A DNA stretch of 64,000 nt from Streptomyces lydicus (GTDB lineage: Bacteria > Actinomycetota > Actinomycetes > Streptomycetales > Streptomycetaceae): contig NZ_CP017157.1 in assembly GCF_001729485.1 (NCBI RefSeq), positions 1,984,001-2,048,000 on the forward strand, written 5' to 3'. The notes beneath the pieces were generated by a model, which searched no databases, was not told where the DNA came from, and was given only the letters and a program-made list of their open reading frames with translations. The translations under genes and the position numbers were made by a program. Numbering within the stretch: the first letter of the stretch is position 1; each line of letters starts with the position of its first letter. This document shows positions 6,913 to 56,549 of this stretch, in pieces.

Positions 6913-8286
6913 ATGTCTGTTTCCGCCGTTGCCACCGACCCCGCCGTCTGCGCCCCGCTGCCGGTCCTCGGCCGGGACGTCCGGGTCCCGCTCGTCACCG
7001 GCGGCGAGGTCGACTACGCCGCGCTGGACTACGCCGCCAGCGCACCGGCACTGCAGCGGGTCTGGGACGATGTGGCCGCCTACGCCCCGTACTACGGCAG
7101 CGTGCACCGCGGGGCGGGCTACCTCTCGCAGCTGTCCACCGACCTCTTCGAGAACAGCCGCCGCACCATCGCCGAGTTCCTCGGCTGCCGCGCCGACGAG
7201 CAGGTGGTCTTCACCCGCTCCACCACCGACTCCCTCAACCTGCTCGCCGCCGTGCTCCCGCAGGACACCCGGGTGTTTGTCTTCGAGACCGAGCACCACG
7301 CCTCCCTCCTGCCCTGGGAACAGCGCGCCGACCTGACGGTGACGTACCTCAACGCGCCCCGCACGCCCGCACAGGCGGTGGCCACCCTGGAACAGGCGCT
7401 GGCCGACAGGGAGCCCTACGGCCCGGCGCTGGTCTGCGTCACCGGCGCCTCCAACGTCACCGGCGAGCTCTGGCCCGTACGGGAACTGGCCGCCGCGGCG
7501 CACGCGCACGGCGCGCGGATCGTCCTGGACGCGGCGCAGCTCGCCCCGCACCACCCCGTCGACCTCGCCGAACTGGACGTCGACTGGATCGCTTTCTCCG
7601 GCCACAAGTTGTACGCGCCGTTCGGCGCCGGCGTGCTGGCCGGGCGGGCGGACTGGCTGCAGGCGGCCGAGCCGTACCTGGCGGGCGGCGGCGCCAGCCG
7701 CAAGGTCTCCCGGCGCACGGACGGCGGTGTGGACGTCGAGTGGCACACCACGGCGGCCCGCCACGAGGCCGGCTCGCCCAACGTCATCGGCGCCTACGCG
7801 ATCGCGTCCGCGTGCAAGGCCCTGACCGAGGCCGGCTTCGACAGCCTGGTGGCCCGCGAGCAGGAACTGATCACCCGGGTCCGCGAGGGCCTGGCCGAGG
7901 TGCCCGAGGTACGCGTCCTCTCCCTCTTCGGCGACGACGCCCCGCGCGTCGGGGTCCTCTCCTTCGTCGTCGACGGCTGGAACAGCTCGCACTTCGCGGC
8001 GGCGCTCTCCGCGGAGTACGGCATCGGCGTACGCGACGGCCTCTTCTGCGCCCACCCGCTCGTCCGCACCCTCCTGGGCACCGACCCGCAGGACCCGGGC
8101 GAGTGCGGCGCCCCCGAAGCGGCCCCCGGCGAACTCTCCCTCAACGCGATCCGGGTCTCCTTCGGCGCCGGCACCCCCGACGAGCACGTCGACCGCTTCC
8201 TCCGCGCGGTCAAGGAACTCGTCACGAACGGCGCCCGCTGGAACTACCGCACGGTGGACGGCCGTTGCGTTCCGGCGACGGTTTGA
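6913..8286 (+). CDS. Class V aminotransferase (cysteine-desulfurase-like PLP enzyme)
   Basis: A 457-residue fold-type I PLP enzyme of the NifS/Csd class. The PLP Lys lies in AFSGHKLYAPFGAGVL, the cofactor-binding Asp/Gln in RIVLDAAQLAPH, and the substrate-side His in FVFETEHHASLLPW. No typical desulfurase Cys loop is obvious, so the reaction (desulfuration, lyase or transamination) is open. The start ATG at 6913 follows GGGAG at 6901-6905. Control by a SAM-IV riboswitch about 200 bases upstream points to sulfur amino acid metabolism, repressed when SAM is abundant. It ends against the palindromic element at 8297-8668. Confidence 0.88.
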   Translation: MSVSAVATDPAVCAPLPVLGRDVRVPLVTGGEVDYAALDYAASAPALQRVWDDVAAYAPYYGSVHRGAGYLSQLSTDLFENSRRTIAEFLGCRADEQVVFTRSTTDSLNLLAAVLPQDTRVFVFETEHHASLLPWEQRADLTVTYLNAPRTPAQAVATLEQALADREPYGPALVCVTGASNVTGELWPVRELAAAAHAHGARIVLDAAQLAPHHPVDLAELDVDWIAFSGHKLYAPFGAGVLAGRADWLQAAEPYLAGGGASRKVSRRTDGGVDVEWHTTAARHEAGSPNVIGAYAIASACKALTEAGFDSLVAREQELITRVREGLAEVPEVRVLSLFGDDAPRVGVLSFVVDGWNSSHFAAALSAEYGIGVRDGLFCAHPLVRTLLGTDPQDPGECGAPEAAPGELSLNAIRVSFGAGTPDEHVDRFLRAVKELVTNGARWNYRTVDGRCVPATV

Positions 8287-8296
8287 CTGACCCCCC

Positions 8297-8668
8297 ACGT
8301 TGTTGTCCGTCCCGCCGTGGTGGTTTCTCGCCGTTGCGCCTGCGGCGGGCGTGGGTGGTCGGGTGCGGTGCCGCTCCTCCGGACTTCGTCCTGCGGCGCG
8401 CCCCCTCCCGTAGTGGATAAGAAAAGGCCGGTGGGGGCGAGCGTCAGTTAACGACGCTCGCCCCCACCGGCCTTAACTTTCCCTCCCGCGGGAGGGGCCG
8501 GACCGCAGGACGAAGTCCGGAGGGCCGGCACCGCACCCGACAACAACCGGCCCGCCGCAGGCGCAACGGCGAGCAACACCCACGGCGGGACGGAAAACAA
8601 CGTGCGGGGGCGCCGCAAAGCGCAACGGCGAGCAACACCCACGGCGCCGCAGACAAAAACGTGGGAAG
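8297..8668. repeat. Large palindromic intergenic element, copy A
   Basis: Fills the gap between two convergent genes. Bases 8297-8604 form one nested imperfect palindrome: a perfect 22-bp core stem (8424-8445 with 8453-8474, 7-base loop), then CCCCTCCCG (8402-8410)/8489-8497, then a perfect 19-bp arm (8378-8396 with 8503-8521), a GTCGGGTGCGGTGCCG arm, a roughly 24-bp arm beginning at 8327, and outer arms ACGTTGTTGTCC/GGAAAACAACGT. Bases 8605-8668 partly repeat the outer module (CGCAACGGCGAGCAACACCC occurs twice) without a left partner. A longer relative lies at 40722-41166. No protein-coding signal was seen; the short frames inside are by-products of GC bias. Confidence 0.9.
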
Positions 8669-8685: not shown

Positions 8686-8967
8686 CTACGCTTCGAGCCC
8701 GATCGCGAAAGCCGCCTCAAGGTCGTGCTGCGAATACGTGCGGAAGGCGATGTGCGTCTCGGTGGAGGCGACGCCGGGGATCTTGCTGATGCGGCCGGGG
8801 ATGACGTCCGCGAGGTCGTCGTGCCGGGCGACGCGCACCATGGCGATCAGGTCGTGGGCGCCGGTCACCGAGTAGACCTCGCTGACGCCCTCCAGCGCGG
8901 CGATCTTCTCGGCGATCTCCGGGATCTGGTCCACGCTGGTCTTGATGAGCACGATCGACGTGATCAC
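8686..8967 (-). CDS. Stand-alone AsnC/RAM ligand-binding domain protein
   Basis: A 93-residue protein equal to the C-terminal effector-binding domain of Lrp/AsnC regulators (GVSEVYSVTGAHDLIAMVRV, GVASTETHIAFRTY), without the DNA-binding half. Such stand-alone domains are thought to bind amino acids or to co-assemble with full-length Lrp proteins. The GTG start overlaps the rhomboid gene's stop by four bases (GTGA), so it is the second gene of a coupled pair. The palindromic element follows it immediately. Confidence 0.9.
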   Translation of the reverse strand: MITSIVLIKTSVDQIPEIAEKIAALEGVSEVYSVTGAHDLIAMVRVARHDDLADVIPGRISKIPGVASTETHIAFRTYSQHDLEAAFAIGLEA

Positions 8968-40721: not shown

Positions 40722-41166
40722 CCCACGTACTTGGCTTTCCCGCCGTGGTGGTTGCCGCCGCACGTTGTTGTCCGTCCCGCCGTGGGTGTTGCTCGCCGTT
40801 GCGCCTGCGGCGGGCGTGGGTGGTCGGGTGCGGTGCCGCTCCTCCGGACTTCGTCCTGCGGCGCGTCCCCTCCCGTGAGTGGATGGACAAAGGCCGGTGG
40901 GGGCGGGCGTCAGTAAGACGCTCGCCCCCACCGGCCTTCAACTTTCTCCCCCACGGGAGGGGACGGGCCGGAGGGGCCTGTTGTGTGGACGTAAAGCGAA
41001 GCAGTCCACACAACAGGCCCCGGAGGCTCGTCACCGCACCCACAACAACCCGGCCCGCCGCAGGCGCCACGGCGAGAAACAAACACGGCGGGACGGAAAA
41101 CAACGTGCGGGGCGCCGCAAAGCGCAACGGCGAGCAGCCACCACGGCGGGAAAGCCGAAAACGTGG
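40722..41166. repeat. Large palindromic intergenic element, copy B
   Basis: A 445-bp imperfect palindrome related to copy A at 8297. The outer arms CCCACGT...GGCTTTCCCGCCGTGGTGG (40722-40751) match the complement of the right end (41138-41166). The core stem 40890-40911/40917-40938 is the same 22-bp core with one G-T pair. The arm TCCGGACTTCGTCCTGCGG is kept on the left, but its right partner is replaced by a different perfect 18-bp hairpin (40973-40990 with 41004-41021, 13-base loop). It fills the gap between thiG and the PASTA kinase gene, both on the minus strand. Confidence 0.9.
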
Positions 41167-41173
41167 GAAGCCC

Positions 41174-55897: not shown

Positions 55898-56549
55898 CAG
55901 TCCACGGCCGGGGCCGGGGCCGGGGACGGGAGTGAGAGCGGGAGCGGCCCACGGCCCCGGCCCTGGCCCCGGCCCTGGCCCCGGGGACGGAGGCACCTTC
56001 GGCCAAGGGAGCCGGAGAAGGCCCACGGCCACGGCCTCGGCCACGTCCACGGCGGCCACCCGGCGGCCATGCCCACGTCCGCGGTGGCCACGGCCACGGC
56101 CACGGCCTCGGTCATGGCCTCGGCCATGGTCATGGGCGCGGACACGGGAGCCCGACCTGATTCCGGCCGGCGGATGACGGGCTGAGCGGACCCCGGCGCC
56201 GCGGGACCGGGCCTCCGTGGGCCGGGGGCGTCCGGCCCACGGGTCGGGGCGGGGCGGGCAGAGCTGGGTCGGGGCGGCACGTGCCCGCGCCCTGCGGCCC
56301 GCCGGATCCGGCGGGCCGCAGGGCGCGGGGGAGCGGTCGCAGCGGGAGGGGGAGCGGTCGCACGGTGCTGGTGGTGGAGGTGGTGGGTGGGTTGGGGCGG
56401 GGCCCCGGGGGGAGGGGAAAGGAGAGCTGGGCCCCGCCGCAGCCTCCCCGCCGCACCCCTCCTCCGGCTCCGCGATCGGCGGATGGCGTGGGACGGAATA
56501 GGGTGGTGGGCGACTGGATGTTCATGCCCCCGCCGAGGAGCCACCCGCC
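55898..56549. other. Long non-coding low-complexity intergenic region
   Basis: 652 bases with no convincing gene. 55906-56000 is made of GGCC/CCGG words in short tandem arrays; 56015-56130 repeats GGCCACGGCC and GGCCTCGGCCA-like words in loose 6- and 12-base periods. Hairpins: 56215-56225/56232-56242 (11 bp), and the 46-base perfect palindrome at 56284-56329. Bases 56340-56440 carry G-rich runs. A start of transcription for the methyltransferase gene is expected near 56500 but no clear promoter was recognised. Confidence 0.7.
56284..56329. repeat. 46-bp perfect palindrome
   Basis: Perfect inverted repeat with 23-base arms and no loop, centred between 56306 and 56307 on GCCGGATCCGGC. It is almost entirely G and C. 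It could act as a bidirectional terminator for the upstream HEPN-type gene, or fold as a cruciform. Confidence 0.9.

What the first reader, a model, noticed from the sequence alone, without database searches (positions are those of the whole stretch)
8297..8668. Multi-arm giant palindrome between convergent genes (copy A)
Seen directly: a 308-bp nested palindrome with a perfect 22-bp core, a perfect 19-bp arm and several more arms, followed by a half module without partner. It is too large and too layered for a terminator, and has no coding content. A family member with the same core lies 32 kb away. This looks like a non-autonomous mobile or structural intergenic element rather than a simple terminator; it may fold as a long double-stranded RNA or DNA cruciform.
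Basis: seen in the sequence. Interest (0 to 1): 0.75.

Follow-up and report, generated by a model that had tools for sequence, protein, structure and literature searches.

The report
Fixed-site, word-swapping terminator palindrome family
The giant palindrome is one of a family of gene-end elements, probably transcription stop signals, in a group of Streptomyces species; the elements stay at the same chromosomal sites but appear to keep exchanging short pieces of sequence with each other, which is unusual for bacterial repeats.

Summary
The palindrome is real (RNA fold -321 kcal/mol, z -25) and is one of 19 copies in this S. lydicus-like genome, with relatives in neighbouring species. It does not look like a hopping element: 16 own copies have a copy at the same site in S. 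lydicus (flanks 96.2% identical), two more sites hold core-less remnants there, 18 of 19 own copies lie next to a stop codon, and the 22-bp core scores as a terminator on both strands. The surprise is the contents. A copy is no more like its same-site counterpart in S. lydicus (90.6%) than like other S. lydicus copies (90.3%); the counterpart is the best match for 0 of 16. Within S. nigrescens (36 copies) linkage between variants falls from r2 0.29 at 1-5 bp to background beyond 80 bp. So sites are inherited while short words are exchanged. Arms carry one of two local hairpins; the long form has a near-constant 13-14-nt loop on a stem that changes freely but stays paired. Best reading: bidirectional gene-3'-end modules in a terminator slot, homogenised by ectopic exchange. 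The exchange mechanism and the termination itself are inferred. Novelty: new variant of a known kind.

The parts
8291..8665 (.). Copy A, whole element between two convergent genes
6913..8286 (+). Left neighbour, class-V-aminotransferase-like protein (name recalled, not searched); its stop codon is 4 nt before the element
8686..8967 (-). Right neighbour, Lrp/AsnC-like small protein (name recalled, not searched); its stop codon faces the element
8291..8350 (+). Left outer module
   Evidence: arm I1; 60 nt, 92% complementary to 8550-8609
8550..8609 (-). Right outer module 1
   Evidence: arm I1
8620..8665 (-). Right outer module 2, the unpaired half module
   Evidence: direct repeat D1 and arm I3
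8361..8370 (+). Left clamp GGGTGCGGTG
   Evidence: its constancy in alignment A1 is by construction: rows were picked with it
8381..8391 (+). Short arm hairpin GGACTTCGTCC (left)
8402..8411 (+). Inner clamp CCCCTCCCGT
8424..8474 (.). Core stem 22 bp with 7-nt loop; terminator-like on both strands
8488..8497 (-). Inner clamp, right side (GCGGGAGGGG)
8508..8518 (-). Short arm hairpin GGACGAAGTCC (right)
8529..8538 (-). Right clamp CACCGCACCC
40722..41170 (.). Copy B, second family member in the window, between co-directional genes
40890..40938 (.). Copy B core stem (22 bp, 95% complementary, 5-nt loop)
40973..41021 (-). Copy B long-arm hairpin: 18-bp stem, loop TGCTTCGCTTTAC at 40991-41003; opposite arm is of the short form, so the copy is a hybrid

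Best explanation
A lineage-specific, modular gene-3'-end element that fills the terminator slot behind stop codons. SHOWN by computation: a core stem that scores as a terminator on both strands; flanking clamps and one of two local arm hairpins; variable numbers of outer modules; the same sites occupied in a sister species; sequence contents so thoroughly mixed among copies that site of origin is barely detectable and linkage is lost within tens of bases. INFERRED: (1) the core ends transcription, and the element is palindromic because two head-to-head 3'-end modules share one core, so that a transcript entering from either side meets arm hairpin then terminator in the same order; (2) copies are homogenised by non-allelic exchange (gene conversion or template switching), most plausibly because the palindrome forms hairpins during replication that break or stall, for instance by SbcCD cleavage, and are repaired from another copy. 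The enzyme in step 2 is a guess.
For: Terminator core: both strands in the scan, -56.9 and -58.7 kcal/mol. Position: a stop codon within 21 nt of my boundary for 18 of 19 own copies, within 35 nt for 11 of 14 anchored S. lydicus and 28 of 36 anchored S. nigrescens copies. Convergent neighbours: own 10 of 19, S. lydicus 8 of 14, S. nigrescens 17 of 36, against 10 of 56 adjacent pairs in the window. Slot use: at the L042 site S. nigrescens has an ordinary hairpin with a T-rich tail instead; at the copy-A locus 45 of the 66 genomes with the same neighbour have an intergenic region of 132 nt or less, many with one hairpin (by eye). Shared sites: 16 own copies with both flanks matched in S. lydicus, 10 in S. 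nigrescens, 2 more in S. lydicus with remnants. Exchange: same-site identity 0.906 against 0.903 for other pairs, p 0.12, best match 0 of 16; by layer similar; linkage decay, 0 of 500 permutations as low, 2687 of 3159 site pairs with four gametes. Hybrid copy B. Structure: 23 distinct outer stems 95.7% paired against 63.4% when dealt at random. SbcD present.
Against: No transcription data. The tails are weak (TTAACTTTCC, TTTTCTTATC). Two S. lydicus sites (of own L038 and L052) hold remnants without the core, so the core is not indispensable; half elements with one arm also persist (L054, L055). 3 of 14 S. lydicus and 8 of 36 S. nigrescens copies have no stop codon within 35 nt of my boundary, and 1 own and 3 nigrescens copies lie between divergent genes. 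The right outer layer keeps slight site memory (p 0.02). Arms of one copy are not more alike than arms of different copies (p 0.71, 0.92, 0.80), so the whole long palindrome is not shown to be selected. In the own arms alone linkage decay is not significant (194 of 1000 permutations). SbcD rings in 13 of 14 control genomes, so its presence is weak evidence.
Confidence: 0.57

Rival explanations
1. Non-autonomous transposable element (MITE- or REPIN-like) that spreads by insertion, helped by an unidentified transposase, with preference for hairpins or terminators; apparent exchange is repeated insertion into, and replacement of, older copies.
For: Inverted outer ends (TTCCCACGTTGT...ACAACGTGGGAA in several copies); more exact-pattern copies in S. 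nigrescens (47) than in own (13) or S. lydicus (13); 29 of 40 fetched nigrescens loci match no own copy's flanks, and 5 of 7 extra partial matches in S. lydicus lie elsewhere; tandem arrays of about 197-bp inner units in two other genomes show the unit can multiply; the own left middle arm is identical in all 17 copies that have it.
Against: Sites shared with S. lydicus for 16 own copies; no Y1 transposase; no clean empty site at 3 sites examined; no plasmid or phage match; word-level mosaicism finer than whole-element insertion would give. No other transposase family was searched.
Confidence: 0.2
2. Ordinary intrinsic terminators that have grown by duplication; similarity among copies reflects common ancestry and the mosaic look is homoplasy under strong pairing constraint.
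For: Core and position behave as terminators; plain hairpins fill the same slot in relatives.
Against: Shared multi-base words occur in many combinations and linkage is distance-dependent; same-site copies are not closer to each other than to others, although flanks are 96.2% identical.
Confidence: 0.12
3. Chromosome-structure or DNA-level element (protein binding, supercoiling or segregation) whose arms are read as DNA hairpins; termination is incidental.
For: A conserved loop on a co-varying stem is compatible with single-stranded DNA recognition; two orientations and several gene contexts are used; the core can be missing.
Against: Bias to positions next to stop codons and towards convergent pairs, and T-rich tails on both sides of the core, fit RNA 3'-end function better.
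Confidence: 0.1

Closest known systems
BOX elements of Streptococcus pneumoniae
   Same: Modular dispersed intergenic repeats that fold tightly and vary in module number (passages of PMC3049150)
   Different: No sequence relation tested; there described as sharing MITE features, with mobility proposed, 67-637 bp long; here sites are shared between species and words are mixed among copies
SPRITE, the terminator-like repeat of S. pneumoniae
   Same: Dispersed repeat resembling a Rho-independent terminator, enriched near the 3' ends of genes (passages of PMC3049150)
   Different: SPRITE is an 18-bp duplex followed by a U-rich tract; here a core nested in clamps, arm hairpins and outer modules
REP/BIME and REPIN-RAYT repeats
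   Same: Palindromic extragenic repeats; a 1988 review title in the reference list of PMC2267715 already asks whether REPs evolve by gene conversion
   Different: REPs are 20-40 bp with a GTAG end and RAYT transposases (abstract and passages of PMC3733652, listing); no Y1 transposase here. BIMEs are named from recall
Streptomyces intrinsic terminators (Term-seq atlas)
   Same: The most stable and longest hairpins, few U's and covariation are described for Streptomyces (passages of PMC12207403)
   Different: That atlas covers seven Streptomyces species, S. lydicus not among them; it reports the A-tracts of bidirectional terminators as virtually absent in Streptomyces; the passages I saw mention no nested 300-500-bp element

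Membership tests
Intrinsic transcription terminator | GC-rich stem followed by a T-rich tail | tested here: met
   20 pairs counted, both strands, tails TTAACTTTCC and TTTTCTTATC; 5 sites found in the 1.4 kb, 3 of them the core, against 0.8 +/- 0.8 in shuffles
Intrinsic transcription terminator | Location right behind stop codons | tested here: met
   18 of 19 own copies within 21 nt; 11 of 14 S. lydicus and 28 of 36 S. nigrescens copies within 35 nt
Intrinsic transcription terminator | Transcripts end there | not testable with these tools
   no RNA data held
REP / REPIN (RAYT-associated) | RAYT (Y1_Tnp) transposase in the genome | tested here: not met
   PF01797: no match at E 0.001; rings in 5 of 14 control genomes
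REP / REPIN (RAYT-associated) | Short 20-40 bp palindrome tagged GTAG at one end | tested here: not met
   own elements are about 238-498 bp by my boundaries; ends are of the CCCACGTT/AACGTGGG kind
MITE | Terminal inverted repeats | tested here: met
   outer modules; but their number varies from copy to copy and half elements lack one side
MITE | Target-site duplication and clean empty sites | tested here: inconclusive
   3 sites examined (L189, L186, L042), none a clean empty site
MITE | Related autonomous transposon | tested here: inconclusive
   own copies are too short to hold a transposase gene and no Y1 transposase was found; other transposase families were not searched
BOX element | boxA/boxB/boxC sequence modules | not tested
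   only the modular organisation was compared, from passages of PMC3049150
Rfam RNA family | Match above gathering score | tested here: not met
   7 matches at E <= 1, all to miRNA-precursor models and all below gathering scores

The most novel reading that the evidence does not exclude
A bacterial genome keeps a population of about 20 to 50 gene-3'-end cassettes at fixed addresses that exchange sequence in very short tracts (tens of bases) as if freely recombining, with a near-constant loop on freely changing stems acting as the recognition or exchange site of an unidentified factor: a dedicated, site-conserving shuffling system for 3' untranslated regions.
Probability: 0.15. Interest if true: 0.85.

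Novelty: new variant of a known kind. Interest (0 to 1): 0.6.

Why it matters
Concerted evolution of dispersed non-coding repeats at shared sites, down to linkage equilibrium over tens of bases inside one chromosome, gives a natural record of ectopic exchange in a bacterium. It makes two questions testable: whether long palindromes act as exchange hotspots through hairpin breakage, and whether Streptomyces uses composite bidirectional 3'-end modules. It also warns that such elements may break draft assemblies and mislead orthology of intergenic regions.

Tried and rejected
Mobile element by insertion: looked for a RAYT, plasmid and phage relatives, viral contigs with the 21-base loop motif and empty sites; nothing clean. 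Only 2 of the 29 nigrescens loci without an own counterpart, and 1 own site, were examined for empty sites. Known RNA family: only sub-threshold miRNA-precursor models, which I take to be what a long GC-rich hairpin gives. Correction between the two arms of one palindrome: tested and not seen. Selection bias: own copies were first found by similarity to copy A, which could inflate the likeness of paralogs; an anchor pattern found 13 places, all among the 19, and a nigrescens-type query returned all 19 places plus one weak extra match at 540367-540484, which I did not follow.

My first gene-context script was misled by open frames inside the element and was replaced. The stop-codon distances were cut off by the script at about 15 nt inside the element and looked too good (14 of 14 and 32 of 36); walks each frame to its real stop and gives 11 of 14 and 28 of 36. 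One search ended with an error in its last part, after those numbers were printed; reran that part. The two sites of own L038 and L052 that one search had not matched in S. lydicus turned out to hold core-less remnants.

Other limits. A first ortholog comparison fixed the orientation; one search repeats it allowing either orientation. Rows dropped: one search segmented 12 of 17 own, 13 of 16 lydicus and 10 of 10 nigrescens copies; one search used 9-12 per layer; one search used 36 of 40 fetched nigrescens loci; searches used 17, 14 and 36 copies; alignment A1 holds 22 of the 28 segments (the 6 left out have a long arm). In one search I cut the L180 sequence to its last 330 bases because it began with an extra coding stretch. 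In one search stems were extended while they paired, and for I picked 13 of 28 hairpins, so the percentage paired is partly by construction; one search uses fixed 14-base flanks instead. The genome searches scored at most 4 or 40 candidates per genome, so copy numbers from them are lower bounds. The S. lydicus genome is a draft. Element boundaries and the codon-composition gene calls are mine.

Full report
WHAT IS THERE. Between two convergent genes (ending at 8286 on + and 8686 on -) lies a nested palindrome. Its arms pair at 8291-8350/8550-8609, 8355-8410/8489-8544 and 8400-8445/8453-8498, and a second right-hand outer module (8620-8665) has no partner of its own on the left. As RNA it folds into one long hairpin of -320.7 kcal/mol, z -25 against 100 shuffles.

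A FAMILY OF 19. A whole-genome search with copy A gave 56 matches that I reduce to 19 distinct places in the 8.2-Mb chromosome. Because that search starts from copy A, I repeated it with an anchor pattern (inner clamps and a free middle): 13 exact places, all among the 19, control 0. A nigrescens-type copy as query returned all 19 and one weak further place. The anchor pattern gave 13 places in S. lydicus NRRL ISP-5461 (G150) and 47 in S. nigrescens HEK616 (G151), 4 and 2 in two other relatives and 0 in four. In a draw of 392 genomes of the genus, 6 had any match, own included, and one of those (G199) looks like chance by its sequence. A DNA search over 150 genomes of the genus had 23 with a match at E <= 0.001, own included; clear relatives (E below 1e-12) were in G090, G064, G036 and G048. 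No plasmid, phage or viral-contig relative was found.

ANATOMY. Reading inward: outer modules of about 59 nt starting CCCACGTT or a variant, usually one to three per side; a clamp GGGTGCGGTG; an arm hairpin; an inner clamp CCCCTCCCGT; the core stem; and the mirror image. The core scores as an intrinsic terminator on both strands and folds at -56.9 and -58.7 kcal/mol. In 22 own and S. lydicus rows (of 28 listed) 98.2% of cells pair and 6 of 69 pairs show changes on both sides, against 2.8 in shuffles; 36 of 45 arm pairs never vary and so say nothing.

TWO ARM HAIRPINS. Of 53 distinct arm segments in all loci held, the 20 short ones carry GGACTTCGTCC or a one- or two-base variant, and in 29 of the 33 long ones the best hairpin has the loop TGCT(TC, GAC or GTC)GCTTTAC closed by GGAC/GTCC. 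The stems outside this are free to change: 23 distinct outer stems are 95.7% paired, against 63.4% when right halves are dealt at random. On 13 chosen hairpins 58 cells show double changes against 17.9 in shuffles, 0 of 500, but that set was picked for pairing. Copy A has two short arms; copy B has one short and one long arm, so it is a hybrid.

WHERE IT SITS. By a codon-composition gene caller, own copies lie between convergent genes in 10 cases, tandem in 8 and divergent in 1 (it called L040 tandem, corrected by eye because it missed a short acetyltransferase-like gene). S. lydicus: 8 convergent, 6 tandem of 14 anchored of 16; S. nigrescens: 17, 16 and 3 divergent of 36 anchored of 40; the window's own gene pairs: 10, 37 and 9. 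A stop codon lies within 21 nt of my boundary for 18 of 19 own copies, and within 35 nt for 11 of 14 S. lydicus and 28 of 36 S. nigrescens copies.

SITES ARE SHARED. All 16 S. lydicus copies fetched have both flanks matching the flanks of an own copy, at 94.3-98.9%. Of 7 further partial matches in S. lydicus, 2 lie at the own L038 and L052 sites (flanks 96.9-97.6%) and hold short remnants without the core, and 5 lie elsewhere. At the last own site, L042, S. lydicus has an outer-module-like stretch and another gene. So S. lydicus has some form of it, or a trace, at all 19 own sites. Ten nigrescens copies match an own copy on both flanks and one on one flank, of 40 fetched. In the aligned stretch of the window, S. 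nigrescens and S. lydicus, clamps plus core occur only at sites A and B in all three. At the copy-A locus nested elements of this plan are seen by motif in 9 of 80 genomes (a tenth motif hit, L120, is coding sequence), among them S. lydicus, S. nigrescens and S. albospinus, and by eye in three more (L060, L062, L067); of 66 genomes with the same right neighbour, 45 have an intergenic region of 132 nt or less.

CONTENTS ARE NOT. With flanks at 96.2%, element identity at the same site is 0.906 and between different sites of the two genomes 0.903; the same-site copy is best-scoring for 0 of 16; p 0.12. With S. nigrescens, flanks 88.5%: 0.867 against 0.865, best for 1 of 10. By layers only the right outer layer shows slight site memory with S. 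lydicus, p 0.02; the other nine tests gave p 0.13-0.92. Within S. nigrescens, 80 variable sites in 36 copies: mean r2 0.292 at 1-5 bp, 0.122 at 5-10, 0.066 at 10-20, 0.033 at 40-80, 0.029 at 80-160 and 0.028 beyond, where 1/n is 0.028; correlation with distance -0.251, 0 of 500 permutations as low; four gametes in 2687 of 3159 pairs. The pooled arms of S. lydicus and S. nigrescens and the own core show the same decay (1, 0 and 1 of 1000 permutations); own arms alone do not (194 of 1000). Left and right arms of one copy are no more alike than those of different copies. I read this as one shared pool of short words.

SLOT REPLACEMENT RATHER THAN SIMPLE INSERTION. At the own L042 site S. nigrescens has a plain hairpin with a T-rich tail. 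At two nigrescens-only sites own and S. lydicus have other content, by eye including extra genes. None is a clean empty site, so insertion is neither shown nor excluded there.

MECHANISM. The palindromic plan has a simple reading: two head-to-head 3'-end modules sharing a core, so that a transcript from either side meets the arm hairpin first and then the terminator. This is inferred. For the exchange, long palindromes form hairpins during replication that SbcCD cuts, and breaks at interrupted ones are repaired by recombination (E. coli; abstract and passages of PMC4245961). An SbcD gene is present at 4825497-4826225. That repair uses other copies here is a hypothesis; the SbcD family rings in 13 of 14 control genomes (8 over the cut-off), so its presence is weak evidence.

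LITERATURE. Closest published kinds are BOX and SPRITE repeats (passages of PMC3049150), REP/RAYT repeats (passages of PMC3733652) and Streptomyces terminators (passages of PMC12207403). Nine searches listed no paper that, by its title or the start of its abstract, describes this family; the library is open-access only, lists were capped, and I read no paper whole.

Noticed in passing
L273:2327-3294 (G048) and L274:1676-2410 (G036): Tandem arrays of 197-bp and 196-bp units (4.9 and 3.8 copies) related to the inner part of this element, in two other Streptomyces genomes; by eye the first begins about 40 nt behind a stop codon.
   Followed up: partly
L217:2066-2427 (S. nigrescens): An element whose two halves are separated by what reads by eye as a small open frame of about 70 codons.
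   Followed up: no
L051, L052, L053 and L057 (arm region): A 38-base sequence CTCCCCCACTGCCT(G/A)AAGGGCGTGGGAGGTACCCCCAG replaces a stretch of the arm, in one arm or (L053) both; it may be a separate dispersed repeat.
   Followed up: no
L054, L055, L084: Half elements: core plus one arm, the other arm missing up to the stop codon (L060 is a similar partial case).
   Followed up: partly
L277 about 2100-2290 and L280 about 1935-2074 (S. lydicus): Core-less remnants at the sites of own copies L052 and L038; L277 keeps outer modules, a clamp and a long-arm hairpin.
   Followed up: partly
G152 contig ends, e.g. C102:47-176, C91:27-184: Many matches in this draft genome lie at contig ends, as if the element breaks short-read assembly.
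   Followed up: no
window 54918 (- strand): An isolated outer-module-like motif (CCCACGT...), with one also at 56488 (- strand) of the joined S. lydicus stretch.
   Followed up: no
G000:C1:540367-540484: A weak twentieth match to a nigrescens-type copy, about 5 kb from the L050 copy.
   Followed up: no
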